A stretch of DNA of 64,000 nucleotides from Maridesulfovibrio sp. Its GTDB lineage: Bacteria > Desulfobacterota > Desulfovibrionia > Desulfovibrionales > Desulfovibrionaceae. The stretch covers positions 558,001 to 622,000 of the forward strand of contig NZ_OY781616.1 in assembly GCF_963677005.1 (NCBI RefSeq). Reading direction: 5' to 3'. The position numbers and the translations under genes are program-made. Shown in pieces: positions 1,558 to 17,380 of the stretch (position 1 is its first letter; each line of letters begins with the position of its first letter). The notes below the pieces were generated by a model, which did no database searches, had not been told where the DNA came from, and saw only the letters and a list, made by a program, of their open reading frames with translations.

Positions 1558-1601
1558 ACGGACTGTGGACCTGAATTAAGTAAAACAGGTCCGCAGTCCG
1601 T
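1558..1601. repeat. Near-perfect inverted repeat at the edge of the phage module
   Basis: Two 16-base arms (1558-1573 and 1586-1601) pair with one mismatch around a 12-base A/T-rich loop. It lies between the ABC permease stop and the first phage gene. No T-run follows the right arm on the plus strand, so a simple intrinsic terminator is not obvious. It may be a terminator remnant, a protein-binding site or the scar of the deletion that removed the packaging genes; the sequence does not decide. Confidence 0.55.
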
Positions 1602-1668: not shown

Positions 1669-2001
1669 ATGACACCGGATGCCGGTTTTCTGGAAGAGGA
1701 CAAACGGGAAGCGGATGAGATCAAGAAGGAGCAGCGCAGGGAGGCGGAGCAGTTTCTGTCCGATATGCGCAAGACCTTCGGAACTGCTCACGGAAAACGT
1801 ATTTTTACTTTTCTGCTCGAGCAGGGCGGAGTCAATGCGCCGCTCTTTTCCCGGGACGCTGATATGTATCGCAACGTGGCCGTTCATGATTTCGTGGTCG
1901 AAAACATCCTTTCGGCAGTGGTAACGGCTGATGAGGAAATCTATCTTTCGATCATTCGTGAACGGGCCGAAAAATTACGCCATCAGGAGGAGACTGAGTA
2001 A
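1669..2001 (+). CDS. Bbp19-like phage protein
   Basis: A 110-residue acidic/basic protein. The ATG at 1669 is chosen because AAAGGAGG lies at 1653-1660, whereas an in-frame ATG at 1525 has no ribosome site. The segment FLSDMRKTFGTAHGKRI and the motif FSRDADMYRNVAVHD resemble the Bbp19 family of Bordetella phage BPP-1 and related podoviruses. In those phages this gene lies just before the scaffold and capsid genes, as it does here. Its role in the virion or assembly is not known to me. The stop overlaps the next start (TAATG). This is the first surviving gene of the phage module. Confidence 0.75.
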   Translation: MTPDAGFLEEDKREADEIKKEQRREAEQFLSDMRKTFGTAHGKRIFTFLLEQGGVNAPLFSRDADMYRNVAVHDFVVENILSAVVTADEEIYLSIIRERAEKLRHQEETE

Positions 2002-2768
2002 TGGATGATTTTGCAGGGTCTGAAATGGTTCAGGCCATGGAGCAGGATCAGGACGTGTCGGCAAAGGATATCCCTGCGCCGGAAGGACTGTCCGCAGTAC
2101 ATGATGAGGCCGGGCAACCTGTTAAGGAGGGAGGTGAAGCAATAGGGAGGGTCTCCGGGGAAGCTTTCGGAAAAGCATCCGAGGGCGCAAATGAAGAAGG
2201 TGCCGTGGAAACAAAGCCGGAAAAAGCAGGGGAAGTACCGGGCAAATCCGAGTCGGCTTCTCCGGGAAAACGGTCCGGGCAGGCTGAAGAAAACACTTCA
2301 TCGGCAATTCCTCCTGCCCCGGAAGACTACAGGATTGATTACGGTCTGCCGGGCGGAGTTGATCCGCAGATTGACAGCCGCTTCCGGAATTTTGCCCATG
2401 AAAACGGCATTTCCGCTGAGCTGGCCCAGAAGCTGGTGGATTTCAGCAACCAACTGGAAACTGTGCGCATGGAGGAGCAGCATTATCAGGTGGAGGAATG
2501 GGAAAAACAGCTCCGTGCCATGCCCGGATGGCAGGGGCGCAACTACAGCCGCAATGTGGGCATTGCCCGGCAGGCCCTGCGAACCTTTGCCTCCCCTGAA
2601 CTGGCCGAACTTATCGGGACTTCCGGGTACGGAAATCATCCCGAAGTGGTCAAGGCCTTTTACAAAGTGGGGAAACGATTGTCCGAGGATTCCTATCTGG
2701 ACAGCTCTCGTAGAACCCCACGCAAGAAAACCATCGGCGAGATACTGTATCCCGATCAGCCTGTCTGA
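2001..2768 (+). CDS. Phage capsid scaffolding protein
   Basis: A 255-residue protein. The first ~105 residues are a low-complexity region rich in Glu, Gly, Ala, Ser and Lys. A helical C-terminal half follows, with the segments ISAELAQKLVDFSNQLE and LIGTSGYGNHPEVVKAF. The G-x-G-N-H-P-E-V-V motif near the C terminus is characteristic of scaffolding proteins of T7-like and BPP-1-like podoviruses, and the gene lies directly upstream of the major capsid gene. In such phages the protein templates procapsid assembly and leaves the head before maturation. It is translationally coupled to the upstream gene. Confidence 0.8.
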   Translation: MDDFAGSEMVQAMEQDQDVSAKDIPAPEGLSAVHDEAGQPVKEGGEAIGRVSGEAFGKASEGANEEGAVETKPEKAGEVPGKSESASPGKRSGQAEENTSSAIPPAPEDYRIDYGLPGGVDPQIDSRFRNFAHENGISAELAQKLVDFSNQLETVRMEEQHYQVEEWEKQLRAMPGWQGRNYSRNVGIARQALRTFASPELAELIGTSGYGNHPEVVKAFYKVGKRLSEDSYLDSSRRTPRKKTIGEILYPDQPV

Positions 2769-3057: not shown

Positions 3058-4026
3058 ATGGGAATTCTTGGAACCAACGCTCTTACTCTTTCCGAATGGT
3101 CCAACCGTACCGACCCCAGTGGCAAGGTGGCTGAAATCACCGAAGTCCTTTCCATGACCAACGAGATTCTCGATGACGCGGCCTGGGTTGAAGGCAACCT
3201 GCCCACCGGACACAGGACCACGGTCCGTACCGATCTGCCTACCGTAAGCTGGCGCAAGCTCAACTACGGGGTCAAGCCGAGCAAGTCCCGCACCAAGCAG
3301 ATTGACGATACCTGCGGCATGCTCGAATCCTACGCTGAAATCGACAAGGCCCTGTGCGAACTCAACGGTGATTCCTCCAACTTCCGCACCTCCGAGGAAC
3401 GCGCGTTCCTTGAAGCAATGAACAAGGAATTTGCCGAGACTTTCATTTACGGGGATACTTCCCTTGAACCGGAAAAATTCCTCGGCCTCTCGCCGCGTTT
3501 CAATTCTCTGGAGTACAAGAACGTTATCAACTTCGGCGGAGCGGGTGACAACTGCACATCCATATGGATCGTCTGCTGGTCGGATCAGACCGTGCATTTC
3601 ACCTTTCCCAAGGGCAGCAACAGCGGGTTGAAACATACTGATCTCGGCGAAGTCACTCTCGAAGATGCCGGTGGAGGCAGATTTCAGGGCGTGAGAACCC
3701 ACTACAAATGGTCTCCCGGTCTGGTCGTGCGCGACTGGCGCTACGTGGTGCGCATCGCCTCCATCGATCCGGCCAACCTCGGCGGCAATTCCCTGCGCCA
3801 TTCGCTGATCGAAGGACTGAACATGATTCCCAATACGAACATGGGCAGAACCGTTATCTACTGCAACCAGTCCGTCAAAACCCAGCTGGATATCGAAGCG
3901 TCCGACAAGGACAACGTCATGCTCAGGACCGAAAACTGGGAAGGAAAACCCGTCACCACCTTCTGGGGTTGCCCCGTAAGGCGTGTTGATTCCATTCTTA
4001 ACACCGAGTCCGCGATTACCGCCTAG
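3058..4026 (+). CDS. Phage major capsid protein (BPP-1 Bbp17-like, HK97 fold family)
   Basis: A 322-residue protein with the diagnostic opening of this capsid family: short N terminus, then AEITEVLSMTNEILDDAAW, VEGNLPTGHRTTVRTDLP and GVKPSKSRTKQIDDTCG. It matches the size and motif order of the major capsid proteins of BPP-1-like podoviruses, which build the icosahedral shell on the scaffold and are reinforced by a cement protein, here the next gene. The ATG follows AAGGAG at 3043-3048. The frame is intact throughout, unlike the small gene further downstream, so the shell protein could still be made. Confidence 0.92.
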   Translation: MGILGTNALTLSEWSNRTDPSGKVAEITEVLSMTNEILDDAAWVEGNLPTGHRTTVRTDLPTVSWRKLNYGVKPSKSRTKQIDDTCGMLESYAEIDKALCELNGDSSNFRTSEERAFLEAMNKEFAETFIYGDTSLEPEKFLGLSPRFNSLEYKNVINFGGAGDNCTSIWIVCWSDQTVHFTFPKGSNSGLKHTDLGEVTLEDAGGGRFQGVRTHYKWSPGLVVRDWRYVVRIASIDPANLGGNSLRHSLIEGLNMIPNTNMGRTVIYCNQSVKTQLDIEASDKDNVMLRTENWEGKPVTTFWGCPVRRVDSILNTESAITA

Positions 4027-4056: not shown

Positions 4057-4449
4057 ATGTTTTTGGATAATGAACTTTGTTTTTGCGAGGAGCAGTCCGT
4101 AACCGCCAGCGCGGTTTCCCAGAATGTGGTCTGCGTGGGCGAGGATTGCGGTTCCGGTTCTCCGGTACGTCTCAAGGTGCTGGTGGACGGGGAGGACTTC
4201 GCTGCTCTCACCAGTCTGCGTGTCGGAGTGCAGGCCTCTTCCACCGATGATTTCGCATTGTATGACACCCTTTTTGAATCCGGTTCCATTCCCGTGGCGG
4301 ATCTGAAACAGGGCTATACCTTCCCACTGCCTGCGCTGCCGGCCAGACACAGCGGTTATCTGAGGCTTTCCTTCACCGTTACCGGAGCAAATGCCACAGC
4401 TGGAAAGGTCAGCGGATACATCATTCTGGATGATCAGACCAACGTATAA
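4057..4449 (+). CDS. Capsid cement protein (Bbp16 family)
   Basis: A 130-residue beta-rich protein (FLDNELCFCEEQSVTASAVS at the start, SGYIILDDQTNV at the end). It resembles the Bbp16 cement protein of BPP-1, a jelly-roll protein that clamps neighbouring capsomers. It lies 30 bases behind the capsid gene with AGGAG upstream. Its C-terminal 57 codons are the source of the direct repeats found again at 7010-7180 and partly at 8633-8660, so its 3' end is the duplication point around which cargo genes have been inserted. Confidence 0.85.
   Translation: MFLDNELCFCEEQSVTASAVSQNVVCVGEDCGSGSPVRLKVLVDGEDFAALTSLRVGVQASSTDDFALYDTLFESGSIPVADLKQGYTFPLPALPARHSGYLRLSFTVTGANATAGKVSGYIILDDQTNV
4276..4446 (+). 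repeat. Direct repeat A, copy 1 (cement gene 3' end)
   Basis: About 171 bases of the cement coding sequence recur at 7010-7180 with only a few substitutions. The two copies lie at a constant offset of 2,734 bases. The last part (from 4420) also recurs at 8633. Downstream of the stop codon this copy diverges from the other two. Confidence 0.9.
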
Positions 4450-4460
4450 GGCGGTTGTGA

Positions 4461-4761
4461 TGAAATATATCTGCAAGGAAAATTGTTATGTGCGGAATCA
4501 GCAGGGCTGACTTCAGTCTTTCCGCAAGAACGATGCGGTGGATTATGCAGGGGGAACTGCTGTTCCCTCCATTTTGAACCTGTTGACGGTCTTGAGCGGT
4601 CTGCAGAGGGTATGCAACCGATAAAAAACGGAGATGCCGAAAAAGAGAAGCTGCGCGCGCGGCTCAGAAAACTTAGAGTCAACTGCCCGGCAAATGCCGG
4701 GCAGTTGACCATGCGCAGAAAGCTGCAGAATGTGTCGTCGGAACAAAATATACCCTTGTAA
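4461..4761 (+). pseudogene. Frameshifted small phage structural-region gene
   Basis: Three overlapping frames together read as one small protein. The ATG frame from 4461 gives MKYICKENCYVRNQQG and stops. A second frame gives QSFRKNDAVDYAGGTAVPS. A third gives HFEPVDGLERSAEGMQPI and runs on as NGDAEKEKLRARLRKL to a stop near 4761. This order resembles short conserved phage proteins that start with a membrane-like MKYI.. region and end in a coiled-coil tail. Two frameshifts therefore appear to have broken the gene; assembly errors are the alternative. It follows the cement gene by 12 bases. Confidence 0.6.
4678..4709. repeat. Perfect 15-bp hairpin inside the broken phage gene
   Basis: The arms 4678-4692 and 4695-4709 are perfectly complementary with a 2-base loop (AA). 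No T-run follows. It lies at the 3' end of the frameshifted gene, where an intact homologue would be expected to keep coding. Confidence 0.75.
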
Positions 4762-4790
4762 TGTCTCGAAATAATAGCCAGTTTTTTCAG

Positions 4791-4819
4791 GACCCCCGTA
4801 CCTTTATTGGGCGGGGGTC
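4791..4819 (+). terminator. Degenerate terminator hairpin, related to repeat B terminators
   Basis: The arms GACCCCCG (4791-4798) and CGGGGGTC (4812-4819) are the same as those of the terminators at 7263 and 8741, but here no T-run follows. It looks like the decayed original of the element duplicated downstream. Confidence 0.55.
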
Positions 4820-5348
4820 AATCATATGAAACTGATGTCCTATACCCGGTTCATGGCTGAAAGCAAAAGGTTAATCAAATGAACCACAATCCACGGTTCG
4901 CGCTGCCTTTTGTGCCGCGGCAGTCTCTTTTTACAGAGCGCAGAGTGTGTCAAAAACTGTTCATTGAGCCTGAGACCAGGCTATAGCATCTTTGAAATCG
5001 TAATTGCCGGGAAACGAGCCAGTAATGTCAGCCCCCACTCGCCTTTTATGTATTGACTAAAGTTGGCTAAACTTTTATTTGCAGCGATGATATTGTTTAT
5101 CAGGTGTGAAGTTGCTTTTTTGTCTTATTTTGACTTTGAAATGGTTTCGGCTCCACTGAACTTATACATCAGTGAAGCAGCAGGAAGACGGACACAGATC
5201 CTGTCGACTGAAGCTCCGACAACGGCTGTGCTGCCAATGCGGCACCTTGCGGTGACCCTTCATGCAGGATTTGTTGCGAATTAATTTAAACATGCATGTG
5301 TAAATAGTCAGGGCTTATTGTCCTTTCGAAGGAAAGAAGGAGTTTAAT
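4820..5348. other. Gap before the cargo genes, no gene recognised
   Basis: About 530 bases between the degenerate terminator and the first cargo gene. A 73-codon open frame at 5063-5284 has no ribosome site and no recognisable sequence. AAGGAAAGAAGGAG at the right end serves the gene at 5349. Confidence 0.5.
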
Positions 5349-5630
5349 ATGAAAGCAGTCAAATATCTTATTCTTGCAGTTGTATTGTCAGCAATACTTT
5401 TTCCAGCGGCCTGTTTTGCTGGAGAATGGTACCTGATCGACATGAACACCATGCAGTGTGTCCAAAATGACAAGGCAAATGCTTATGAGATGAAAAGAGC
5501 AGGGGTAAATGTACGCAAAGTTCATGAAGCCCTGGAAGGGGCCTATATAGTCAGCATATCGGGATCATCCCTGTTTGTTGCCGATTCCAGGGAAATGTGT
5601 GAGAAATTGCTAGAACTTATGAAAAAGTAA
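5349..5630 (+). CDS. Small secreted protein of unknown function (cargo gene 1)
   Basis: A 93-residue protein with a clear signal peptide (KYLILAVVLSAILFPAACFA, predicted cleavage after the second Ala before GEWYLID). The mature part has about 70 residues with two cysteines and a predicted alpha/beta character. GAAGGAG at 5337-5343 supports the ATG, and an intrinsic terminator follows. It is not a phage structural protein by appearance. It lies between the cement and tail tubular genes and is followed by a second exported protein, so it is best read as a moron or lysogenic-conversion gene. Function unknown. Confidence 0.75.
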   Translation: MKAVKYLILAVVLSAILFPAACFAGEWYLIDMNTMQCVQNDKANAYEMKRAGVNVRKVHEALEGAYIVSISGSSLFVADSREMCEKLLELMKK

Positions 5631-5646
5631 AAATCAGAATTATTGG

Positions 5647-5681
5647 AGGACAGGCCTTGTTGGGGCTTGTCCTCTTTTTTT
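5647..5681 (+). terminator. Intrinsic terminator after cargo gene 1
   Basis: A 10-bp stem (5647-5656 with 5664-5673, one G-U pair) is followed directly by seven T residues. It separates the two secreted cargo genes. Confidence 0.85.
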
Positions 5682-5714
5682 GCGTACCCCCTTAATCCTA
5701 CATGAGAAACTGCA

Positions 5715-6959
5715 ATGATATTTTTTATTGAAAAGAGAACTTTTTTCCTGCTATCGGTCTTGTGGCTTGTTTGCATGTTGCTGCCCTTGAAGGCTGACGC
5801 GAATCCGGGCGCGACCATAGCCGAAGTGAATGGTATGCTGAACTCCGTTGCGGGCAAGCAGTCCAAGGATCAGCTCCGGACCTTCTATCTTGTATTGAAA
5901 AAGCTGAATGAAGAAAGTGAACAGAACTATGCAATACTGGACAAGGCGATACGCATCGAGGTGTTTCTTCTTATATACGAGGAGCAGAAGGGAGAAGGAA
6001 GCGCCGTCCCGGACATCATCTCGCTGCATAACAAATTACGGAAAATTAATGCCCTCGGGGGCACGGAAATCCCTTTTACCAAATATTCTGACAGCAAGGA
6101 GTTCGAGAAGATCATCGGAAGAGTCCTCAATGAAATGCCCAATCAGGAGATTCTGGACCGGGGAATGCGCGTCCTCTACCGCACAGGAGACGGCTATTCC
6201 AGCCGTTACGCCATCCGGCAGGCCCTTCCTTATTTTGAACTGGCTGAAGCAAACGGGTTTGACGATACAGAGTTGTATCGCGCCTTCATAGACGTATATA
6301 ACACCAAGGCGTGCAAGGACGAACTCAAATCGATAATATACTGCCGTAAATTTCTTAATTCCGCTAACCGCAAAGGGTTGGACAGGGGATCGGTCCTCAG
6401 GACATTGGCGCTCAATCTTTTCACGACCACCCCTCCGGGGCAGTTGGCAAGGGGGAAGCTGGACGAGATCATTGCCATCATGGAAGACGCCAAGCGTCAT
6501 GGTGACCCGGAGGCCGCCTCCTACATTTCGCAGTTCAAAAGCCTCATGGCCGATCAGTCTTCGGGCGGAGGAGGGGCGCAGGGCGATCCCATTGCGCAAT
6601 TCGCCTCCTACATTCCCCTTAATAACGGACTAAGGACTTTCACGGAATTGGGACGTTGCTCCGCACTTGATGCCCGGGAAAGAAAAATATGCCAGGAAGC
6701 CACCTACGCCTATGACTTCGACCAGTTCTCCCTGGAGGGCAGGGCCAAGAACTACGTAAGCGTGATTACCATGCGCGATTGCTCATACCTGATGAAATAC
6801 GAGGGCAATGAAATGCTTGCTTGCGAAAGTATACTCCCTTATCTGGACAACCGTGAAGTCATGATCAAATGGGTCACATTGGGCGCCCTCGGTTATGTTG
6901 TTGACGTGAAGCGAAACAGAATATTCACCCACTCCGGCGAAGGAGGCTACGGATTCTGA
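5715..6959 (+). CDS. Exported alpha-helical protein of unknown function (cargo gene 2)
   Basis: A 414-residue protein with an N-terminal signal peptide (FFLLSVLWLVCMLLPLKADA). A mostly helical body follows; segments such as RQALPYFELAEANGFDDTEL and AIMEDAKRHGDPEAASYIS resemble Sel1/TPR repeats without fitting them cleanly. A Gly-rich linker near residue 280 precedes a C-terminal domain of about 130 residues with five cysteines. I do not recognise a family. It shares the insert with the preceding secreted protein and ends 14 bases before a 9-bp hairpin that abuts the second cement repeat. No ribosome site of good quality is visible before the ATG. Confidence 0.7.
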   Translation: MIFFIEKRTFFLLSVLWLVCMLLPLKADANPGATIAEVNGMLNSVAGKQSKDQLRTFYLVLKKLNEESEQNYAILDKAIRIEVFLLIYEEQKGEGSAVPDIISLHNKLRKINALGGTEIPFTKYSDSKEFEKIIGRVLNEMPNQEILDRGMRVLYRTGDGYSSRYAIRQALPYFELAEANGFDDTELYRAFIDVYNTKACKDELKSIIYCRKFLNSANRKGLDRGSVLRTLALNLFTTTPPGQLARGKLDEIIAIMEDAKRHGDPEAASYISQFKSLMADQSSGGGGAQGDPIAQFASYIPLNNGLRTFTELGRCSALDARERKICQEATYAYDFDQFSLEGRAKNYVSVITMRDCSYLMKYEGNEMLACESILPYLDNREVMIKWVTLGALGYVVDVKRNRIFTHSGEGGYGF

Positions 6960-6973
6960 TCTGCGGACGCAGA

Positions 6974-6997
6974 GCCGACCGAATTCTGTCGGTCGGC
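6974..6997. repeat. Hairpin at the junction of cargo block 1 and repeat A copy 2
   Basis: A perfect 9-bp stem (GCCGACCGA / TCGGTCGGC) with a 6-base loop, placed exactly between the end of cargo gene 2 and the start of the duplicated cement fragment. No T-run follows. Confidence 0.7.
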
Positions 6998-7009
6998 AGC
7001 ATGGCTTCT

Positions 7010-7183
7010 GAATCCGGTTCCATTCCCGTGGCGGATCTGAAACAGGGCTATGCCTTTCCTCTGCCAGCGCTGCCGGCCAGACACAGCGGTTATCTGAGGC
7101 TTTCCTTCACCGTTGCCGGAGCAAATGCCACAGCTGGAAAGGTCAGCGGATACATCATTCTGGATGATCAGACCAACCTGTAG
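7010..7183 (+). pseudogene. Truncated duplicate of the cement protein gene
   Basis: Codes for the last 57 residues of the cement protein (ESGSIPVADLKQGYAFPLPA onward, ending DDQTNL) in an intact frame up to the TAG stop. It lacks the first 73 residues. An ATG at 7001 could start a 60-residue product, but there is no ribosome site. It differs from the parent by few residues (T to A, V to L), so the duplication is fairly recent or kept similar by recombination. Confidence 0.85.
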
Positions 7184-7298
7184 GCCGGTGCTGCCTGTGC
7201 AATGTCTTATTAAATAGGCGATCTTCGGTCTGATTTTGATGTTGCATACTGTTTTGGACCCCCGTCATTTATCGGCGGGGGTCTTTTTTTGCTGGTTT
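7154..7298 (+). repeat. Direct repeat B, copy 1 (cement 3' tip plus terminator)
   Basis: About 145 bases that recur at 8633-8777 with about five differences. They cover the last codons of the cement fragment, a 75-base spacer and the terminator at 7263-7290. Repeats A and B overlap, so the three copies form a chain: full gene, long fragment plus terminator, short fragment plus terminator. Confidence 0.9.
7261..7290 (+). terminator. Intrinsic terminator (repeat B copy 1)
   Basis: CCCCCG / CGGGGG stem with a short TCATTTAT loop and seven T residues. It closes the phage-side copy and isolates the following methyltransferase gene. Confidence 0.85.
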
Positions 7299-7458
7299 GG
7301 TTATGTTTTCTGAAGTGTTGGAATTTCAGCTAAGCCATATTTTTTAAAGAAATCTAGGCTGCTTGCCATTCAAGGTCGTTTTTCTGTATCTTGTTGAAAC
7401 CACTTGAAATTTATAACGTAATTGTGCTACTAAATCCTAAGTCATGGAGAAAATTTAT

Positions 7459-8616
7459 ATGAGTGACATCAAAATCAGATATATTGACCATACAGGCGTA
7501 CCGAAGAACAGTAGAGTCTGCTTATATGGTGTTGGAAAGGGCGGAGCGGAATCCTTGCAACTTCTTCGTCAGATACGTCCTGATGTGGAGGTCGTCTTTT
7601 TTGCTGATACCTATAATTCTGGTTCATATGAAGGATTTGAAATTATAAGGCCTCAAAACCTTGTCGACCGACAGAACGAATTCGATCTTATCTTAGTCTG
7701 CTCCTGCTACTACACGGAGATAATTACAAATCTATATTCCGTTGGCATTAAGAATGCTGTCGGATTTTCGTGGCCTAAATTTTATAGCTACCTGTTTTTG
7801 CCGGATGAGTTGGGCCGACGGGCTGAAGAGATTAATTATATCATGAATGCTCTGCATTCAGATACGGATAGAGCCTTGTTTAAATTATTGTGCGAGGCGC
7901 GCGTAGCAGGTTCTGCACAGGTTGAACTGCTTTATGGTTCAGCAGGTAAGGAGTGTTTTGTTTTTAAAGAGTCGAGGTTGGAAAATAATTTTTCTGAACA
8001 TACAGCATCCAGTTATTTCGATTTTGTTGATCTTTCAATTGTAGAGTTCGCTGTACAAGCTGGAGTTTATAACGGCAGTGAAGCTTTATTTCTTACCGGG
8101 CAGGAACAGTTGAAAGTGGTTTATGGTTTTGAGCCTCAGGGTAACACTTTTTTTCCTCATGAAACACAACAATCCTTAAATGATTCAGGAAAATTTGTTT
8201 TGATTTCCAAAGGCTTGTGGAATAGTAACTCAGTTGCTGATTTCGCATTGGACGGTAGCGCCAGCTTTGTGAAGGGGCTTTCTGATGCACAGAATTCAAG
8301 TACAGTCCAACTTGTGGTCTTGGATGAAGAACTCAAAAAGCTTGCTATCCCCAGACTGGATTTGCTCATTGCCGATATTGAAAATGCGGAGATTCCTATG
8401 CTTGAAGGTGCCATGAAATGTATCGAGCAAGACCGCCCGCAATTAGCAATCTGTTTTTATCACTCCAAGGAGCAATTTCTTGGAATACCTTTGATGCTGA
8501 TGAAGCAACTGAAAGATTATATTTTCAAGATAGGTCATTATTCAAGGGGGTTGGGTGAGAGTGTCTTTTACGCCATACCTAAAGAAAAATATTCCGGGTT
8601 TCATAGTTGTTCATGA
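7459..8616 (+). CDS. FkbM family methyltransferase (cargo gene 3)
   Basis: A 385-residue protein, longer than the usual FkbM domain (about 250). Residues 1-110 form a Rossmann-like N-terminal region (SRVCLYGVGKGGAESL). The C-terminal half carries FkbM-type motifs: VVYGFEPQGNTF, LDLLIADIENAEIPMLEGA and GHYSRGLGESVFYAI. FkbM enzymes are SAM-dependent O-methyltransferases, often acting on surface sugars. The ATG at 7459 is preferred to 7444 because GGAGAAA lies eight bases upstream of it. The gene is visibly more A/T-rich than the flanking phage genes, which fits acquisition from elsewhere. It is enclosed by repeat B copies. Confidence 0.85.
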   Translation: MSDIKIRYIDHTGVPKNSRVCLYGVGKGGAESLQLLRQIRPDVEVVFFADTYNSGSYEGFEIIRPQNLVDRQNEFDLILVCSCYYTEIITNLYSVGIKNAVGFSWPKFYSYLFLPDELGRRAEEINYIMNALHSDTDRALFKLLCEARVAGSAQVELLYGSAGKECFVFKESRLENNFSEHTASSYFDFVDLSIVEFAVQAGVYNGSEALFLTGQEQLKVVYGFEPQGNTFFPHETQQSLNDSGKFVLISKGLWNSNSVADFALDGSASFVKGLSDAQNSSTVQLVVLDEELKKLAIPRLDLLIADIENAEIPMLEGAMKCIEQDRPQLAICFYHSKEQFLGIPLMLMKQLKDYIFKIGHYSRGLGESVFYAIPKEKYSGFHSCS

Positions 8617-8632
8617 TTGTTCTTATAGTTAA

Positions 8633-8777
8633 ATCATTCTGGATGATCAGACCAACCTGTAGGCCGGTGCTGCCTGTGCAATGTCTTATTAAATAGGCGA
8701 TCTTCGGTCTGGTTTTGATGTTGCAGACTGTTTTGGACCCTCGTCATTTATCGGCGGGGGTCTTTTTTTGCGGGTTT
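8633..8777 (+). repeat. Direct repeat B, copy 2
   Basis: Second copy of the cement 3' tip, spacer and terminator, at a constant offset of 1,479 bases from the first. Only the last 9 cement codons remain. It begins 17 bases after the FkbM stop codon. Confidence 0.9.
8741..8769 (+). terminator. Intrinsic terminator (repeat B copy 2)
   Basis: Same hairpin as at 7261-7290 with one C-to-T change in the left arm, followed by seven T residues. It isolates the methyltransferase from the tail genes. Confidence 0.8.
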
Positions 8778-8841
8778 TGTTTGCCTGACTGCATAGCGGC
8801 CCGGAGTTCCATCAGCTTTGTCCGGCAGCGCGTGTATTCGT

Positions 8842-8897: not shown

Positions 8898-9491
8898 ATG
8901 GCTGTATCGGAAGTTAAAATCTGCAATCTTGCTCTGCGTAAATTGGGGGCGAGACTTATTGAATCGTTGAGCGACAGTTCGCAGGAGGCCGTGACCTGCA
9001 AACTCTTTTATGAACAGGTCCGAGACGCGGTTCTGCGGGAACATCCATGGAATTTCGCGGCCGCACGGACCCGTCTGGCCCTTCTGGCCGAGGTTCCGGC
9101 CTTCGGTTACGCCCATCAGTACCAGCTTCCTGTTGATTGCTTGCACCTGCGCCAATTGAATTCCGCAGATGATGAATTCGTGGTTGAGGGAGACAGGGTC
9201 CTTACTGACCGGGACGGTGCATCGGCCTTGTACACCAGAAAGATCACCAATCCGGTGCTTTTCGACCCTTCGTTCGTGATGGCCTTTTCGGCCCGTCTGT
9301 CAGCTGAAATGGCCGATGATATCACCGGATCGTCCAGCAAGGCCCGTGAGATGTGGACCCTTTACCTCAATGCCATGCAGTCGGCCCGGCTGGCTGATTC
9401 CGCCGAGGGCAGGGAGGACGAGATTCTCAATGACCCCTGGCTGGAAGCGCGGGGGCTTTACGGCACTGATTCGCCGGTATGGAGGGGGTAG
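8898..9491 (+). CDS. Phage tail tubular protein A (T7 gp11 / head-tail adaptor type)
   Basis: A 197-residue protein; the ATG at 8898 follows AAAAGGAGAA. It starts with VSEVKICNLALRKLGA, the opening typical of tail tubular A proteins of podoviruses, followed by VRDAVLREHPWNFAAARTRL and PAFGYAHQYQLPVDCLHLR. In T7-like particles a dodecamer of this protein joins the portal to the nozzle protein, here the next gene. Two bases separate the stop from the next start. The partner portal gene is absent from the window. Confidence 0.9.
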   Translation: MAVSEVKICNLALRKLGARLIESLSDSSQEAVTCKLFYEQVRDAVLREHPWNFAAARTRLALLAEVPAFGYAHQYQLPVDCLHLRQLNSADDEFVVEGDRVLTDRDGASALYTRKITNPVLFDPSFVMAFSARLSAEMADDITGSSSKAREMWTLYLNAMQSARLADSAEGREDEILNDPWLEARGLYGTDSPVWRG

Positions 9492-9493
9492 AT

Positions 9494-11590
9494 ATGTCCG
9501 TTTCCCTGATCATGACCAATTTCAGTGCCGGGGAACTTTCCCCCAGGCTGGGAGGGCGGGTTGATCTCGCCAAATATTCAAACGGGCTGGCCCTGCTTGA
9601 TAACATGTACACCCATCCCCACGGAGGGGCCTCCAGACGAACCGGACTTCGGTTCATCCGAGAATCCGTGGGACGGGAGCTTATGCCGGGCGGAAGCCTT
9701 GATTCCACAGCCGGTTGGACTCTTGGGGACGGCTGGACTGTCGCGGCCGGTAACGGAAGCTGTGACGGCACACAGAACGATCTGGCAGTGCTCAGCCGGG
9801 ATATCGGGCTGGTTGAAGACACGGTCTATGAAATCGGATTCACTGTGAGCGGCTACGCGGCCGGAGAGCTTGCCGTCTGTGCCGGAGACGGAACGGTCAG
9901 CGTGCCGGTGACAGCGGACGGGGTTTATACATTCAGATCACGGTGCGGAGCTTCGGCCACGGTGGAACTTCGGGCCGATGCCGATTTCATCGGGGCGGTG
10001 GAAGACCTTTCCGTACGCGAAACCGGGCCGAAAACCAGACTGATCCCGTTTGAATTTTCCACCGAGCAGGCCTACGTGCTGGCTTTTACCGACAGGAACA
10101 TGCGCGTGTTCAAAAACGGTGGCATTGTGGTGGATGCCGACGGGACACCCGTGGAGGTTGCAACTCCGTATAAGGAATCCGATCTTGCGGGAATACGCTT
10201 CACCCAATCTGCCGATGTCATGTATCTGGTGCATCCGGAGATACAACCCTACAAACTTTCACGCACTTCGCATGTGGACTGGTCGATGAATATCGTGCCG
10301 TTTTCCTCGGCTCCGTCGGATTGGAACAGCACCAATGGATACCCATCCTGCGTGACCTTTTTTGAGGAACGGCTCTGCTTTGCGGCCAGCCCGCAGAAAC
10401 CGCAGACCATCTGGATGAGCAAGAGCGGTGCGTATGAGGATTTCGGAGTCTCTTCGCCTGTGGTTGATGATGATGCCTGCACCTACACCCTTTCTGCTGA
10501 TCAGGTGAACGCGATTCGCTGGATGGTTAGCTCCAAGAAGCTGATCATGGGAACTTCCGGGGGCGAATGGTGGCTTTCCGGCGGTAGCAGTGCCGATATG
10601 GTCACCCCGAATTCGGTCATGGTCCGCCGTGAGACAACGCACGGCTCTGCGTCACTGCCTCCGGTGGTAGTCGGCGGAGTGATGATATTTCTGCAGCGTG
10701 AAGGGCGCACGGTCCGTGAACTTTCCTATTCCTTTGAGTCTGACGGTTATGTGGCTCCGGACCTGACCATCCTGGCCGAACACCTGACCCGAACAAATTC
10801 CATACTTGAATGGGCCTACCAGCAGTCCCCGGATTCCGTGATCTGGATGGTCCGCGATGACGGGCTGATGCTTGGCCTTACCTATCTGCGGGAGCATGAG
10901 GTAGTGGGCTTTCACAAGCACAGGACGGACGGAAAATTCCGCTCCGTATGTACCATTCCCGGACCGACACAGGAAGAGCTGTGGACAGTGGTCGAGCGGG
11001 AAGTGGGCGGTATTTCCCGTTGTTATATCGAACGGATGGAAAATCAGTTTTCGGGTGAAAGTTCCAGAGACGCTTTTTTTGTTGATAGCGGACTGAGCTA
11101 CGATCAGGAAACGGCGGACACGGTTTTCACCGGACTGGACCATCTTGAAGGGAAGACTGTTTCCGTTCTTGCGGACGGGGCAGTGCGTCCTGACGTAACG
11201 GTCATCAACGGGGCCATTACCCTGGCGGCTCCGGCCAGCGTGGTCCATGCCGGGCTTCCTTATGTCTCGGACATGAAAACCCTGCGGCTTGAAGGCGGTT
11301 CCATGAGCGGCGGGACCGCACAGGGACGCATGAAGCGCATCTCGCACGTGACCGTGCGGCTGTTCCAGTCCCTCGGATTGCAGGTGGGGTATGACGGGGA
11401 GCATCTTGAAAGGGCGCCGTTCCGCACCACTGCCGATCTGGTCGGAGGCCCTCCTTCGCTCTACAGCGGCGATTACGAGGTCAAATTCAACCGGGGGTAT
11501 GACCGCGACGGGCAGGTTCACATCCGGCAGGACCAGCCCCTGCCTCTGACCGTTCTGGCTCTGATCCCTGAAGTTTCGGTGTATTCATGA
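9494..11590 (+). CDS. Phage tail tubular protein B (nozzle)
   Basis: A 698-residue protein; the ATG at 9494 follows GGAGGGGG. The N terminus ITMNFSAGELSP-like (here IMTNFSAGELSPRLGGRVDL) and YSNGLALLDNMYTHPHGGAS is highly characteristic of tail tubular B / stabilisation proteins of T7-like and BPP-1-like phages. The protein forms the hexameric tip of the short tail. In this copy residues 60-170 look like an inserted carbohydrate-binding-like beta domain (TAGWTLGDGWTVAAGNGS). Its 3' end overlaps the next gene by four bases (ATGA). Confidence 0.92.
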   Translation: MSVSLIMTNFSAGELSPRLGGRVDLAKYSNGLALLDNMYTHPHGGASRRTGLRFIRESVGRELMPGGSLDSTAGWTLGDGWTVAAGNGSCDGTQNDLAVLSRDIGLVEDTVYEIGFTVSGYAAGELAVCAGDGTVSVPVTADGVYTFRSRCGASATVELRADADFIGAVEDLSVRETGPKTRLIPFEFSTEQAYVLAFTDRNMRVFKNGGIVVDADGTPVEVATPYKESDLAGIRFTQSADVMYLVHPEIQPYKLSRTSHVDWSMNIVPFSSAPSDWNSTNGYPSCVTFFEERLCFAASPQKPQTIWMSKSGAYEDFGVSSPVVDDDACTYTLSADQVNAIRWMVSSKKLIMGTSGGEWWLSGGSSADMVTPNSVMVRRETTHGSASLPPVVVGGVMIFLQREGRTVRELSYSFESDGYVAPDLTILAEHLTRTNSILEWAYQQSPDSVIWMVRDDGLMLGLTYLREHEVVGFHKHRTDGKFRSVCTIPGPTQEELWTVVEREVGGISRCYIERMENQFSGESSRDAFFVDSGLSYDQETADTVFTGLDHLEGKTVSVLADGAVRPDVTVINGAITLAAPASVVHAGLPYVSDMKTLRLEGGSMSGGTAQGRMKRISHVTVRLFQSLGLQVGYDGEHLERAPFRTTADLVGGPPSLYSGDYEVKFNRGYDRDGQVHIRQDQPLPLTVLALIPEVSVYS

Positions 11591-12081
11591 GTCTGGCGGA
11601 AAGAGCATGCGTGATAACCATAGGAATCCCTTCCATCCATGATCTGGAGACCGTTGCTGCTGATATCCGTGTTTCTGACAGGCGCGATATGCAGGGGCTG
11701 CATCCGGGCAAACCGGTCTATGAGATTCTTATGGGGGACGTGGCTCTTTCGAGGATGGTTTACGGACTTTATCTGCGTGGAAAAATTGCCGCGGTTTTCG
11801 GTGTGGTCCCGTCAGGGCCGGGAATCGGTACGCCGTGGCTTGCGGCTTCGACCTGTGTGGAGCGCAACAAACTGTCATTCGCAAGAATGTCGGTGCGAAT
11901 GCTGGACATGATTCAGAAACCTTTTCCGGTGCTGGACACATGGGTTTGCGCGGAAAATTCAATGAGTTTGCACTGGCACAGCTGGTGCGGGTTTGAATTT
12001 GCGAGCGAAACTGTCCGCATAGGTCGGGATCGGTTTTACCGGGCTGTGCGGATAGTAAATAAACAAAAGGAGAAAATATAG
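11587..12081 (+). CDS. Phage internal virion protein, T7 gp13-like (acetyltransferase fold)
   Basis: A 164-residue protein that resembles the T7 gp13-type proteins, which have an acetyltransferase-like fold. The segments are YEILMGDVALSRMVYGLYL, VFGVVPSGPGIGTPWLAAS and AENSMSLHWHSWCGFEFAS. In T7-like phages the gene lies between tail tubular B and the core protein gp14, and the protein is needed for particle assembly without remaining in the virion. The same gene order is seen here. The start overlaps the upstream stop (ATGA). Confidence 0.75.
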   Translation: MSLAERACVITIGIPSIHDLETVAADIRVSDRRDMQGLHPGKPVYEILMGDVALSRMVYGLYLRGKIAAVFGVVPSGPGIGTPWLAASTCVERNKLSFARMSVRMLDMIQKPFPVLDTWVCAENSMSLHWHSWCGFEFASETVRIGRDRFYRAVRIVNKQKEKI

Positions 12082-12876
12082 ATGGCATCAGGATTGGGAT
12101 ATATGGCAGTCAGTTCAGTTGCGAGTGTCGCCATAGGCGCCGCCACCAGGGCTGTTTCCGGGCAGAAAGGTTCCTGGGGCAACGTGGGGACGGACGCTTT
12201 TGGAGGAGCGCTGAGCGGCGCAGGCAGTTCGGTGATGAGTTCGGGAAGCAGCCTGATGAGCAGTTCCTCGGTAACTGCTGTCGGGAGTTCGTCCGGCAGT
12301 TCTGCAGGCTCGGCGACAGACAGTTCGGGAAGCCTGCTTGGGGGGCTTGGAAACAGCGGGTCGTATCTCGGTATGATGAGCCAGTTCGGACAGTCCGTCC
12401 TTGGCGGCAGTGAGCAGATCGGCGATGCCCAGTACAATTCCAGAATGACCGAGCTCAGGAACTACCGCACAGTCCAGCAGGGGGTATACGGCAGGGCCGC
12501 GAGTTACAAGGAAGCGGAAATAGTCAACAGGGAAGCTGAAATGGAATTGGCAGCCCTGCGCCGGGAGCTATACCGCAGGAACCATTCTCTGGGGGCCTAC
12601 CGGGGAGTTCGCCTTGACTCCGGTTCCATTGTCGATGCCCGTGAGGACCTGATCAAACAGGCTGATTATGATATGGAAATTGTAAAATATCAGGCTGAGG
12701 TCGATTCCGGACGCTACATTGATCAGGGTAATATGGCTGTATGGACTGCCGAGAGCGCATCCGTTCTCAACACCAATGATTCCAGCAAAGAGACGCAGGA
12801 AACCAGTTCCGCAGTCAGCAAATCGCTCTTGAATACCGGGATGAGCATGGCCGGAAGTCTTTTGAGCTCCAAGTAG
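12082..12876 (+). CDS. Phage internal virion core protein, T7 gp14-like
   Basis: A 264-residue protein with a Gly/Ser-rich N-terminal half (SGAGSSVMSSGSSLMSSSS) and a helical C-terminal half: NREAEMELAALRRELYRRNH, RGVRLDSGSIVDAREDLIKQ and MEIVKYQAEVDSGRYI. Length, position and helix pattern fit the gp14-type ejection proteins, which leave the head at infection and form part of the channel through the envelope. The usual large partners gp15 and gp16 (lytic transglycosylase) are missing between this gene and the fibre. AAAAGGAGAA precedes the ATG. Confidence 0.7.
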   Translation: MASGLGYMAVSSVASVAIGAATRAVSGQKGSWGNVGTDAFGGALSGAGSSVMSSGSSLMSSSSVTAVGSSSGSSAGSATDSSGSLLGGLGNSGSYLGMMSQFGQSVLGGSEQIGDAQYNSRMTELRNYRTVQQGVYGRAASYKEAEIVNREAEMELAALRRELYRRNHSLGAYRGVRLDSGSIVDAREDLIKQADYDMEIVKYQAEVDSGRYIDQGNMAVWTAESASVLNTNDSSKETQETSSAVSKSLLNTGMSMAGSLLSSK

Positions 12877-12941: not shown

Positions 12942-15900
12942 ATGACAGTTGTATCGAGCGGCAGCTCCATCACCTACGCCGGTGATGGAACGCAGGCCGA
13001 ATTTGATTTTAATTTCCGCATATTCGGCGAGGATGATCTTTGCGCAGTGGTGCGCAGTGATGCAGGGGATGAAACCGAACTGGCACCGGGCAGTGACTTT
13101 TCGATTGTATCCGGGGTGGGCAGCGATGCCGGAGGACGGATACGTTATCCTGTTTCAGGAACCCCGCTTGCGGTAGGGGAAACAATCACGTTGTACCGCA
13201 ATATTCCTTATACTCAGGAACTGGAGCTGGTGGATAACGATCCGTTTTCAGCGGCTCTCCTGAACGAGGCGTTTGACCGGGGAGTAATGCGCGACCAGCA
13301 GTTGCAGGAGCAACTGGACCGTGCTCTCAAGTACGAGATCACTACTCCGACAGAAGAGCAGCTTTCGCCGCAGGAGTTTATGCGCGTTATTCTGGAAACA
13401 GGCGATATGGTTTCCTCATCGCTGGCCGGATCGGAAGCCGCCAGGGATCAGGCCCTTGCAGCACAGGCCGCAGCTGAGGAATCCTTTTCCAATGCCCGGA
13501 CAGCCCGCAACGGGGCCGAAGCCGCACAGCTAGCGGCCGAAGAGGCCCGAGATTCCGCACAGGCCATAGCTCTGGGCGACCTTGCGGATCTTCGCAGTGC
13601 GACCCCGGTGCTTTCCGGCCCGGCGGAAGCGGACGAAGGAACCACGCTCACGGTACTTATCGCCGATCACGAGGAAGATGTGGAAACATCATACGATCTT
13701 GATGTGTCCGGCTTCGGTTTGGCAACCGTTTCCGGCAATGCCGTGACCTGGGTGCTCGGCAGTCTGGATGTGGATACCTCATGTTTTCTGGAGGTTGTGC
13801 GCCGCAGGAGGGGGGAACTGTATTCCGAAACTGCCCGGCATACCGTGCTGGTTAAAAATGTGGTGGCTCAGGACGGCCCGACATACTCTTTCGCCGACAC
13901 GACAGACGGCTACCCCGGTGCGACCATAGACGGCGATGGAGTCCATGCTCCTGCGCATACTCTCGGCGTGGACAACGACAATCAACTCGTTTCCGCACAG
14001 GCCGAAATTGTGCGCACCAGTGATGAATTGCCGTTAAACTCCGGTACATCGGCAACCACGATTGAGACGGATAGCAGTGCGAATGTGTCCGAGGGTGACG
14101 GGCTGCTCCTGCTGGTTGACGGAGAGAGTGTTGCGGCTGTTGCGGGGGCGGTTACGGGCGGGGCTGCTGATGAAACGGCATCGCTGGCATGGGTCGGAGC
14201 CGTGCAGTTGATTGATGGTTTTAGCTCCAACTACACCGTGCTGGACGGTGATGCCCCGCAGGGCGCTATACACTCAAAGGTGTTGTCCGGGGATTTTACC
14301 TTTTCGGCGTACCAGCTTTATAATTCTGGCGGCTCCGGCGGGGGAGATTGGTGCTTTGGATTCTTCGCCGCCGATGAGTTGGCAATGTTTGTGGACACCA
14401 GTTACTGCGGGAACGCTATTAATATGAATAACTGGTGGGCTCACAATGGGACAACAACTATAAATACTCCTGACGGGATCGTTAGCACGGGGGTTATTCC
14501 AGCAGGTGATGTTCTAAAATGGGAGAGAATTGACGGGATAGTTAAGTTCTATATAGACGGCGTGCTGGTATACACCGGAACAACACCATATACAGGCGAT
14601 ATCTGCTTACTTATCGGACAGTACTATGGTGGAACAGACTCATACGGAACAGCGCATTGGCGGGATATAACCGCTATTGTCGGTGGTAGCTTATCCATTG
14701 ACATCACCTCTGCAAGTTTGGCATCCGCTCCAACTAAAGCTTTTAAGTCCGCAAGTGCAATAACTCTGAACTCTGGTACATCGGCAACAGCGATAGTTAC
14801 GGACGGATCTGTCAGCATTTCCGAGGGTGACGGGCTGCTCCTGCTGGCAGACGGGGCGAGTGTGGCGGCTGTTGCGGGGGCAGTGACATTAGGATCAGAC
14901 ACTTTAATAAGCGGTGCAACCGGTACTATTATAACACAGATGAGCGATGCGGTAGACTATTTTTCTGTTACTCCTGAAAATGCCTTTGACGGAGATACTG
15001 GAATAACTACATATACCCAGGGCTCTACTATAGAAGATGCTTTTCCGGTGTATCTTGGAAAACTATGGAGTACACCCTATACAATTTCTAAAGTCGTAGT
15101 AACCCCACCGTCCAGTGGTTTTGTAGGATCACAGTTGAGTAGCGCCGCTACGTTGACCATAGCTGTGGAAGGTTCAAACGATGGTACTACTTGGATAGAA
15201 CTCCATTCTGACAACTACGACAATGATGGTACCGCAGTTACAATTACTGATATTATAAAAACATCACCATATCTTCGGCATCGAGTAAAACTTGATGCAG
15301 GTGATCTTGGTAGTGCTTTTCGTTGTTGGGTAGCTGAAATTGATTTTTACTATGCTATGTCAATAATCGACATCACTGCCGCTGGACTGTCCGTTGCTCC
15401 CACAAGCGCGGCCAAATTCAACGCTGCTCAACTCGCGCTAGGGGCCGGGGTTGCCGGTGAATATCTGGGGCCGGAGGTAGGACTGGAATTTGCTTCATCA
15501 GACCCCATCGAATCTAACGAATCCACATGGTTAACTGGCAACACATTGTCAACGTATATGGTTTCTGGGCTTTGTTTGCCCAACGGAGAAACCTTGAAAA
15601 GGGTCGGCACACATCAGAGAACGTGGGACTCTTACCCTGCTTATATCGCTCCTGTCCCTATGCGTCTCGGGGTTGCTAAAAAAGTTGCAGACGATGAATG
15701 GGACGTTATCACATGGTTTCAGCTGTTCAACCACGGCCTTACCGGTTTTGAGTACATAGAACTCACAGAACCATACACAGTTCCTGACGATGGTAACGAC
15801 TACAGAATTATAGGCATTGCAGATAGTACGCAGAACGTTGGTTACGGCTACATCTCTGCGTATGACGGGACAGGCGGAGAAAACAAGGCATATTACAATG

Positions 15901-17080: not shown

Positions 17081-17148
17081 TTTTTTGTGACTGTCGGTGA
17101 AAATTGTTTCCGATCGTCTATCTGAAATTATTTGATTGTATTACTGGT

Positions 17149-17201
17149 AAAAAAGGCCGTAATTCTGCATGGTTCATTATGTAAGAGTTGCGGCCTTTTT
17201 C
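17149..17201 (+). terminator. Probable terminator at the end of the phage module
   Basis: AAAAAAGGCCG (17149-17159) pairs with CGGCCTTTTT (17191-17200) across a 31-base loop and ends in a T-run. The long loop makes it a moderate candidate. Confidence 0.55.
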
Positions 17202-17380
17202 TTCTCTGCCGATTACAGCCGCAGCCTTTGGTGGGGCTTAATATAAAAACAGGGTGTTTTGATATAAAATCATGGTTGCCATTCCGCTCCATGAGTTTTA
17301 TTTTCCCTTTTCCGATAATGTGGGGTGACCGTTACCCACGATGCTGCCTTTACACCTACACAATTCCGGATTTTGTTTTT
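17202..17380. other. Gap between phage module and bioF
   Basis: No gene. An open frame continues upstream of bioF to 17132 but does not look like the bioF N terminus. No tRNA, no integrase and no clear attachment site mark this edge of the phage module. Confidence 0.5.

What the first reader, a model, noticed from the sequence alone, without database searches (positions are those of the whole stretch)
4276..8777. Cargo slots in a virion module bordered by duplicated cement-gene ends
The cement gene 3' end (4276-4446) recurs at 7010-7180, and the last 28 bases with 120 bases of downstream sequence and a terminator recur at 7154-7298 and 8633-8777. Between the copies sit non-phage genes: two exported proteins (block 1) and an FkbM-like methyltransferase (block 2). 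The repeats keep constant offsets over their length. This layout allows gain, loss or exchange of cargo by homologous recombination without breaking the cement gene. I infer a recombination-driven moron site; I do not know of a description of such a chain of repeats at this place.
Basis: partly seen in the sequence, partly recalled or inferred. Interest (0 to 1): 0.75.

Follow-up and report, generated by a model that had tools for sequence, protein, structure and literature searches.

The report
Cargo slot in a domesticated phage
A genus of sulfate-reducing bacteria carries, as part of its own genomes, the genes for a phage-like particle that looks like a gene transfer agent, and the gap between its capsid and tail genes is a slot in which different species hold different passenger genes, in one group toxin-like genes that stand behind the same promoter-like motif as the particle's own operons.

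Summary
The repeats are real: 184 nt at 95% and 152 nt at 96%. But the module is no ordinary prophage. All 17 held genomes of the genus (probably Maridesulfovibrio) carry its capsid, cement, portal and large terminase genes (capsid gene interrupted in G016). It lies beside bioF in the 15 genomes whose contig reaches that far; portal and terminase lie elsewhere, up to about 1.1 Mb away. The genes track rpoB, with dN/dS up to 0.09. I read it as a gene-transfer-agent-like element. The cement-tail gap is 62-4,445 bp in 16 genomes; other junctions inside the module are at most 315 bp. Cargo differs by clade. In 14 of 16 genomes a 28-bp palindrome stands 95-103 bp before the tail operon; not in this one or G002. 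It also precedes other particle operons and genus-specific Rhs genes (32 of 40 sites in six genomes) and, in one clade, slot cassettes. The slot is thus an inter-operon gap. Particles, DNA transfer and toxin delivery are untested.

The parts
1566..1593 (.). 28-bp promoter-like palindrome (P) before the head operon
   Evidence: 2 mismatches to the genus pattern; best scoring site of the window; starts 106 bp before the estimated start of the first head gene
1672..2001 (+). first gene of the head operon (phrog_528); start taken at the ATG after P (my choice; the longest frame starts at 1525)
   Evidence: PHROG 8e-12 for the longer frame
2001..2768 (+). scaffold/protease-like protein (phrog_458)
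   Evidence: PHROG 3e-34
3058..4026 (+). major capsid protein, GP7 family
   Evidence: Pfam 8e-125; in 17 of 17 genus genomes, interrupted in G016
4057..4449 (+). cement protein, Bbp16 family
   Evidence: Pfam 3e-16; in 17 of 17 genus genomes
4272..4455 (+). reference copy of the cement 3' repeat
4460..4743 (+). remains of the small post-cement gene that 15 relatives keep (60-95 aa); broken here by an in-frame stop and a frameshift
4790..4820 (+). hairpin resembling the terminators of copies 2 and 3, without a T run
   Evidence: local score 44, 0 of 500 shuffles reach it; best of 200 other window pieces 38
5349..5630 (+). cargo block 1a: small protein with signal-like N-terminus
   Evidence: no Pfam/PHROG match; not in the other 16 slots; G+C 42%
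5715..6959 (+). cargo block 1b: 414-aa protein with signal-like N-terminus
   Evidence: no Pfam match over cut-off, no PHROG; not in the other 16 slots
7006..7302 (+). repeat copy 2: cement 3' end with stop codon (7006-7183), spacer, terminator-like hairpin (7256-7284)
7444..8616 (+). cargo block 2: FkbM-family methyltransferase
   Evidence: Pfam PF05050 2e-10; G+C 41%, GC3 0.39, against 55% and 0.70 for the capsid gene
8630..8781 (+). repeat copy 3: last bases of cement, spacer, terminator-like hairpin (8735-8763)
8797..8824 (.). possible decayed P, 28 nt, at the place where relatives have P before the tail operon
   Evidence: score -16, within the noise of the scan; only the position speaks for it
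8898..9491 (+). tail tubular A-like protein (phrog_394), first gene of the tail operon
   Evidence: PHROG 9e-52
9479..11590 (+). tail tubular B-like protein (phrog_376)
   Evidence: PHROG 2e-212
11587..12081 (+). internal virion protein (phrog_308)
   Evidence: PHROG 2e-20
12082..12876 (+). possible internal virion protein
   Evidence: PHROG_418 0.0096
12942..16856 (+). tail fibre-like protein; own P in relatives, none found here
   Evidence: syntenic in relatives; P 93-98 bp before it in 14 relatives
17132..18556 (+). host bioF, right neighbour of the module
   Evidence: in 15 of 17 genomes; the contigs of G006 and G009 end before it

Best explanation
The interval is the cargo slot of a gene-transfer-agent-like element: a domesticated short-tailed phage whose genes are spread over several unlinked loci of the host genome. 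Shown by sequence: genus-wide presence, synteny beside bioF, separate holin-terminase-portal locus, co-divergence with the host, purifying selection, a shared 28-bp palindrome in front of operons, and a uniquely variable gap between cement and tail genes. Inferred: the palindrome is the binding site of a regulator that controls the loci together; the capsid operon ends in a terminator and the tail operon restarts at its own palindrome promoter, so DNA inserted in between harms neither. Inferred for this genome: cargo arrived by homologous recombination with DNA from a close relative, with a crossover in the cement 3' end or terminator region, which left a partial cement end plus terminator after each cargo block.
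For: Capsid 17/17, cement 17/17, portal 17/17, terminase 17/17. Synteny with bioF in 15/15 reachable. Portal about 14 kb from the capsid gene in G000, about 1.0 Mb in G016 and 1.1 Mb in G011. Holin family PF11351 (GTA_holin_3TM) 5e-27, portal PF12236 4e-195, terminase phrog_38 1e-59. Trees: 8 of 14 splits shared with rpoB for each of two gene sets (random maximum 3 and 2), Mantel rho 0.86 and 0.89, 0 of 2000 permutations; dN/dS 0.00-0.09, also in the computable pairs with this genome. Slot 62-4,445 bp against at most 315 bp elsewhere in the module. Palindrome 95-103 bp before the tail gene in 14 of 16 genomes; 32 of 40 sites in six genomes precede particle, 505-aa or Rhs genes, 18 of them core particle genes known beforehand; reversed control pattern 0 in 17 genomes; 17 of 25 Rhs N-domain matches in four further genomes have it 98-123 bp upstream. 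Repeats confirmed.
Against: No particle, packaged DNA or transfer was tested. No small terminase was identified. In this genome the palindrome is clear only before the head operon (and one Rhs gene, and a primase-like neighbourhood); candidates before tail and holin genes score within the noise of the scan and none was found before the fibre gene, and a small gene is broken, so the element may be losing function here. One of its two Rhs N-domain genes has no palindrome. In G016 the capsid gene is interrupted by about 25 kb. G002, the most divergent member, has no matching palindrome in the module and no Rhs N-domain. Cement-end repeats are seen in one genome only. The likeness of the resident hairpin to the copies is modest. 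Eight of 40 palindrome sites have no recognised gene after them, and 14 of the 32 others precede the 505-aa and Rhs genes that I first met at such sites, so that part of the count is circular.
Confidence: 0.7

Rival explanations
1. An ordinary defective prophage remnant that happens to persist, with recombination scars and passenger genes.
For: A broken small gene and no clear palindrome before the tail operon in this genome; the capsid gene is interrupted in G016; defective prophages resemble gene transfer agents (PMC11841831, passage).
Against: 17 of 17 genomes, same neighbourhood, trees like rpoB, dN/dS about as low as rpoB, and an unlinked terminase-portal locus conserved in parallel.
Confidence: 0.15
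2. The slot is only a neutral landing site: insertions between two operons are tolerated and neither cargo nor palindrome copies have a role in the particle's life.
For: Clade-B cargo (sensor kinases, Usp proteins, partly on the opposite strand) has no evident link to phage biology and no palindrome of its own.
Against: In clade C slot cassettes are preceded by their own palindrome, and the same palindrome precedes Rhs genes elsewhere.
Confidence: 0.4
3. The palindromes or terminators are sites of a dedicated cassette recombinase, as in integrons.
For: Copies flank cassettes in G007 and G013, and one copy is inverted in G005.
Against: The palindrome lies at a fixed distance before core operons that hold no cassettes (fibre, head, holin); no recombinase was noticed by eye among the slot ORFs (no search was made); this genome's repeats are cement ends, not palindromes.
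Confidence: 0.05
4. An intact temperate phage of the phiV10 kind.
For: Capsid protein 51% identical to that of phiV10, 55% to the best-listed phage record.
Against: Module and terminase-portal locus are far apart in several genomes; no integrase was noticed in the module or in locus 2 by reading the ORFs (no search was made); the terminase is only 22-25% identical to the phage terminases listed.
Confidence: 0.03

Closest known systems
Gene transfer agents (RcGTA, BaGTA, VSH-1/BhGTA, VTA, Dd1)
   Same: Structural and packaging genes of phage origin, vertical inheritance, several loci (PMC11841831 and PMC9662315, passages); a holin of the Pfam family GTA_holin_3TM.
   Different: Short-tailed phage type with a GP7 capsid; shared palindrome; genus-specific Rhs genes behind the same palindrome; a cargo slot after the capsid operon. 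Production and transfer untested.
Dd1 of Desulfovibrio desulfuricans ATCC 27774
   Same: Related bacteria. Genes between Ddes_0703 and Ddes_0715 are tabulated as part of a putative GTA island in PMC5701242 (passage), and Ddes_0720 as a predicted small terminase in PMC6854486 (passage).
   Different: Those sequences were not at hand. Three genomes of genus g40, which may be Desulfovibrio in the strict sense (a guess), have an unsplit portal-capsid-tail cluster 26-42% identical; whether that is Dd1 was not shown.
Bordetella phage BPP-1 / phiV10-type short-tailed phages
   Same: GP7 capsid and Bbp16-type cement proteins.
   Different: Here no contiguous phage genome; terminase and portal are elsewhere. 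That Bbp16 is BPP-1's cement protein is recalled.
Morons of temperate phages
   Same: Extra genes between conserved phage genes, followed by terminator-like sites, odd base composition.
   Different: Sits in an element fixed in the genus; cargo is shared across clades; some cassettes carry the element's own palindrome.
T7 terminator between gene 10 (capsid) and gene 11 (tail tubular A), recalled
   Same: Same place: transcription is cut back between capsid and tail genes.
   Different: Here the gap also holds cargo. The comparison is from memory.
Rhs polymorphic toxins with orphan tips
   Same: YD-shell core, exchangeable tips such as Tlde1, small immunity-like genes next door ('immunity' by position only).
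   Different: Own N-terminal domain found only in this genus within the family (16 of 17; 0 of 271), palindrome shared with the particle genes, and present in genomes without a match to the T6SS gene VipB.

Membership tests
Gene transfer agent | phage-derived capsid, portal, terminase and tail genes kept in all members of a lineage | tested here: met
   17 of 17 genomes for capsid (split in G016), cement, portal, terminase; tail gene A in the 16 whose contig reaches it
Gene transfer agent | vertical inheritance with the host | tested here: met
   trees and Mantel test against rpoB
Gene transfer agent | purifying selection on structural genes | tested here: met
   dN/dS 0.00-0.09 in the pairs where it could be computed
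Gene transfer agent | often encoded at several loci | tested here: met
   head-tail module and terminase-portal locus in 17 genomes; the 505-aa gene at a third place in five resolved genomes
Gene transfer agent | no genes for own integration or replication next to the structural genes | tested here: inconclusive
   none noticed in the module or locus 2 by reading ORFs; no family search for them was made
Gene transfer agent | particles that pack random host DNA, too little to hold all the element's genes | not testable with these tools
   needs purified particles
Gene transfer agent | transfer of host markers to recipients | not testable with these tools
   needs an experiment
Dd1 type | homology to the Ddes_0703-0720 genes | not tested
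   sequences not at hand
Moron | extra gene between two genes that are adjacent in relatives | tested here: met
   cement and tail gene A are 62 bp apart in G002; 530 and 563 bp, with only the small gene between, in G012 and G014
Moron | own promoter and terminator | tested here: inconclusive
   terminator-like sites after cargo in this genome; promoter scan not above shuffles (8 against 6.5)
Integron-like cassette array | dedicated integrase and attachment sites | tested here: inconclusive
   the repeated palindrome is a fixed feature of core operons without cassettes, which speaks against an attachment site; an integrase was not searched for

The most novel reading that the evidence does not exclude
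A toxin-linked gene transfer agent: one palindrome-binding regulator turns on capsid, tail, fibre, holin-terminase-portal and internal virion genes together with genus-specific Rhs toxins, so that the cells that lyse to release DNA-carrying particles also release or load toxins against cells without the matching immunity. The cement-tail slot is then a cassette bay where toxin-immunity pairs are placed under the particle's own promoter, and the particle may spread the slot's contents between kin.
Probability: 0.3. Interest if true: 0.92.

Novelty: new variant of a known kind. Interest (0 to 1): 0.74.

Why it matters
Gene transfer agents are hard to recognise because they are scattered and look like dead prophages. 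Here a shared palindrome ties the scattered loci together and makes the element's parts list directly testable. If the Rhs link holds, DNA transfer and kin-selective killing would be under one switch. The slot shows how a domesticated particle can pick up host genes without harm to its operons.

Tried and rejected
Cement-end repeats as a genus-wide exchange system: rejected, only this genome has them.

Prophage reading: set aside because of 17 of 17 presence, synteny, unlinked loci and low dN/dS.

Terminase search with a viral relative's protein (L006): 0 of 17, without a positive control; the true terminase was found next to the portal instead.

The spacer of copies 2 and 3 as a relative's spacer: no match in other slots beyond the cement end at E below 0.1.

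T6SS as the delivery route of the Rhs proteins: unlikely in G000, G003, G005, G006 and G007, which have the Rhs N-terminal domain but no VipB match (the control genome E. coli rings). The other 11 of 17 genomes do have VipB, so the route stays open there.

Fold search with the Rhs N-terminal domain gave nothing at E 0.001 (model pLDDT 69), and its sequence no phage record. The 505-aa protein's model (pLDDT 78, pTM 0.45) matched 32 viral predicted structures at E up to 0.001, several named for lysin, lysozyme or transglycosylase domains, but with TM-scores of at most 0.44; no solved structure matched at that level. Whether G000 has the 505-aa gene was not tested.

After a check of the report against the calls I ran and changed these points: the tail-operon palindrome count is now given as 14 of 16, not 14 of 14; the partly circular nature of the 32 of 40 count is stated; the integron test is inconclusive, not failed.

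Papers: PMC6006170, PMC9662315, PMC12946183, PMC12724379, PMC11841831, PMC6854486, PMC11409702 and PMC5701242 were seen as passages only; others as search listings. Statements that something is not in print rest on searches, in open-licence papers only; one paper search was left unused.
Full report
What was claimed and what is there. The repeats are real and far beyond chance: 184 nt at 95% identity with offset 2734 and 152 nt at 96% with offset 1479; longest exact match 79 nt against at most 14 nt in 100 shuffles. The cement gene is Bbp16 (Pfam), the gene before it a GP7 major capsid protein, block 2 an FkbM methyltransferase. The block-1 proteins match no family above cut-off. Copy 2 of the cement end differs from the resident gene at 10 of 184 positions and stays open to its stop codon. 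The resident cement gene is followed by the remains of a small gene that relatives keep intact, and then by a hairpin that resembles the terminators of copies 2 and 3 but has no T run (modest support, 44 against 38 for the best of 200 other pieces).

The module is not a prophage. The phage genes begin after an ABC transporter gene and end before bioF. A search of 98 genomes found the capsid gene in 30, among them all 17 genomes of the genus, the window's included (split in G016), and the cement gene likewise in those 17. In the genus the order is head genes, cement, gap, tail genes, fibre, bioF, as far as the contigs reach (G009 ends inside the gap, G006 inside the fibre gene). A portal gene was found in 17 of 17 at a separate place: about 14 kb from the capsid gene in the window's genome, about 1.0 Mb in G016 and 1.1 Mb in G011. 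Beside it lie a large terminase (17 of 17) and a holin of the GTA_holin_3TM family (compared in 13 genomes, one of them cut before the holin and terminase). The genus is probably Maridesulfovibrio: two genomes coincide in contig length and position with records titled Desulfovibrio sp., and G016's length equals, from memory, that of the salexigens type strain.

Inheritance and selection. Trees of head-tail genes and of portal plus terminase each share 8 of 14 splits with rpoB (random maximum 3 and 2). Distances correlate with rpoB distances at rho 0.86 and 0.89, with 0 of 2000 permutations as high. dN/dS of capsid, cement, two tail genes, portal and terminase is 0.00-0.09 over eight genome pairs, rpoB 0.01-0.04, bioF 0.07-0.11. 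Left out: G016's split capsid gene, the terminase of G006 and G009, genes beyond contig ends, and cells not computable because of saturation; rpoB was a partial frame of about 1,150 codons. In the computable pairs the window's genome shows no relaxation.

The slot. In 16 genomes the gap from cement to tail gene A is 62 to 4,445 bp; every other junction inside the module is at most 315 bp (G009 not measurable). Contents by clade, the clades being those of the trees: G002 nothing; G012 and G014 only the small gene; clade B (G001, G003, G004, G008, G010, G011, G016) a membrane histidine kinase (intact in five, a remnant in G010), a Usp protein on the opposite strand (four), a second kinase (G003); clade C (G005, G006, G007, G009, G013, G015) Rhs genes or fragments in four, two related proteins without a Pfam match in G007 and G013, small immunity-like neighbours, a Tlde1 tip in G005, and a chemoreceptor in G009 and G015. 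Toxin and immunity roles are inferred from family and position. The three cargo genes of the window's genome are in none of the other slots. So cargo is replaced over the life of clades, and the cement-end repeats are private to this genome.

The palindrome. Just before the tail operon of most relatives lies a 28-bp inverted repeat followed about 10 nt later by a -10-like box (consensus of 49 sites). At up to 3 mismatches it starts 95-103 bp before the tail gene in 14 of the 16 genomes whose contig holds that gene (not in G000 or G002), 93-98 bp before the fibre gene in the same 14, and before the head operon in 15 of 17 (not G002 or G009). Genome-wide the pattern at 2 mismatches gives 2 to 13 forward-strand matches per genome, and 0 for the reversed control in all 17. 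In six genomes that I resolved, 32 of 40 sites have the start of a head, tail, fibre, holin, 505-aa or Rhs gene 29-164 bp downstream: 18 core particle genes, 5 times the 505-aa gene, 9 Rhs genes. The last two kinds were first met at such sites, so that part is circular. An independent look: in four other genomes 17 of 25 matches of the Rhs N-terminal domain have the palindrome 98-123 bp upstream (G006 4 of 5, G009 5 of 7, G013 6 of 11, G015 2 of 2; one G006 sequence was among the nine used to build the query). The 505-aa protein resembles large internal virion or lysin proteins of short-tailed phages by weak sequence and fold matches. The Rhs N-terminal domain is in 16 of 17 genus genomes and 0 of 271 other genomes of the family. 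In clade C, genes inside the slot have their own copy upstream (G013 two, G006, G007, G009 and G015 one each; one inverted, degenerate copy in G005). In the window's genome the palindrome is clear before the head operon, before one of two Rhs genes and beside a primase-like gene. The candidates before tail and holin genes keep the 28-nt spacing and the expected place but score -16 and -2, while shuffled windows reached 6; none was found before the fibre gene.

How it most likely works. Shown: position, variability, repeats, palindrome placement. Inferred: one regulator controls the dispersed operons; capsid transcription ends at the terminator after cement; tail transcription restarts at the palindrome. 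Between these two points foreign DNA does no harm, which makes a slot. In this genome each cargo block is followed by a partial cement end or its last bases plus the terminator region, as expected if incoming DNA from a close relative recombined in the cement end. The low G+C of the FkbM block (41%, GC3 0.39) against 55% and 0.70 for the capsid gene marks it as foreign; block 1b (51%, GC3 0.63) is not unusual. In T7 a terminator sits at the same capsid-tail boundary (recalled).

Comparison with what is known. A review states that gene transfer agents are vertically inherited, often multi-locus and hard to tell from prophage remnants (PMC11841831, passages). Of the Desulfovibrio agent Dd1, a putative island and a predicted small terminase are in print (PMC5701242 and PMC6854486, passages). 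I found no paper holding both Maridesulfovibrio and gene transfer agent (0 papers); five papers hold gene transfer agent, Rhs and toxin, seen as a listing only, none of which ties them in its title or the start of its abstract. The membership claim stays at 'like a gene transfer agent' because packaging and transfer cannot be tested here.

Verdict. The larger finding is a genus-wide, multi-locus, probably co-regulated phage-derived element with a cargo slot and a possible link to Rhs toxins.

Noticed in passing
G016 (L081:4555 to L082:9462): The capsid gene of this element is interrupted by about 25 kb that, by eye from the translations, carries type I restriction-modification-like genes and a serine-recombinase-like gene.
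   Followed up: partly
family genomes of genus g38 (G053, G108-G114): The homologous terminase matches in two or more blocks in most of these eight genomes, inside open frames of about 570-715 aa, as if a stretch (an intein?) were inserted near residue 245.
   Followed up: no
genus g21 (G036, G219-G227): Ten genomes carry the terminase at 63-69% identity but are not among the 92 genomes with a capsid match, so the terminase may be paired with another capsid there.
   Followed up: no
genus g40 (L165, L166, L167): An unsplit portal-scaffold-capsid-tail cluster 26-42% identical; a candidate for the Dd1 agent.
   Followed up: partly
window 12942-16856: The fibre-like protein holds recurring internal segments, seen by eye; mainly its N-terminal part is well conserved in relatives.
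   Followed up: no
L131 and L147: A palindrome site with 1-2 mismatches lies beside a primase-like gene (by eye) in both G016 and G000; its role is unclear.
   Followed up: no
L129, L134, L135, L141: Four palindrome sites without a recognised particle gene downstream; possible further members of the regulon or chance.
   Followed up: partly
G002 slot: The most divergent genome has an unrelated hairpin in its 62-bp gap between cement and tail gene, so a hairpin may be kept there even where the palindrome is not.
   Followed up: no
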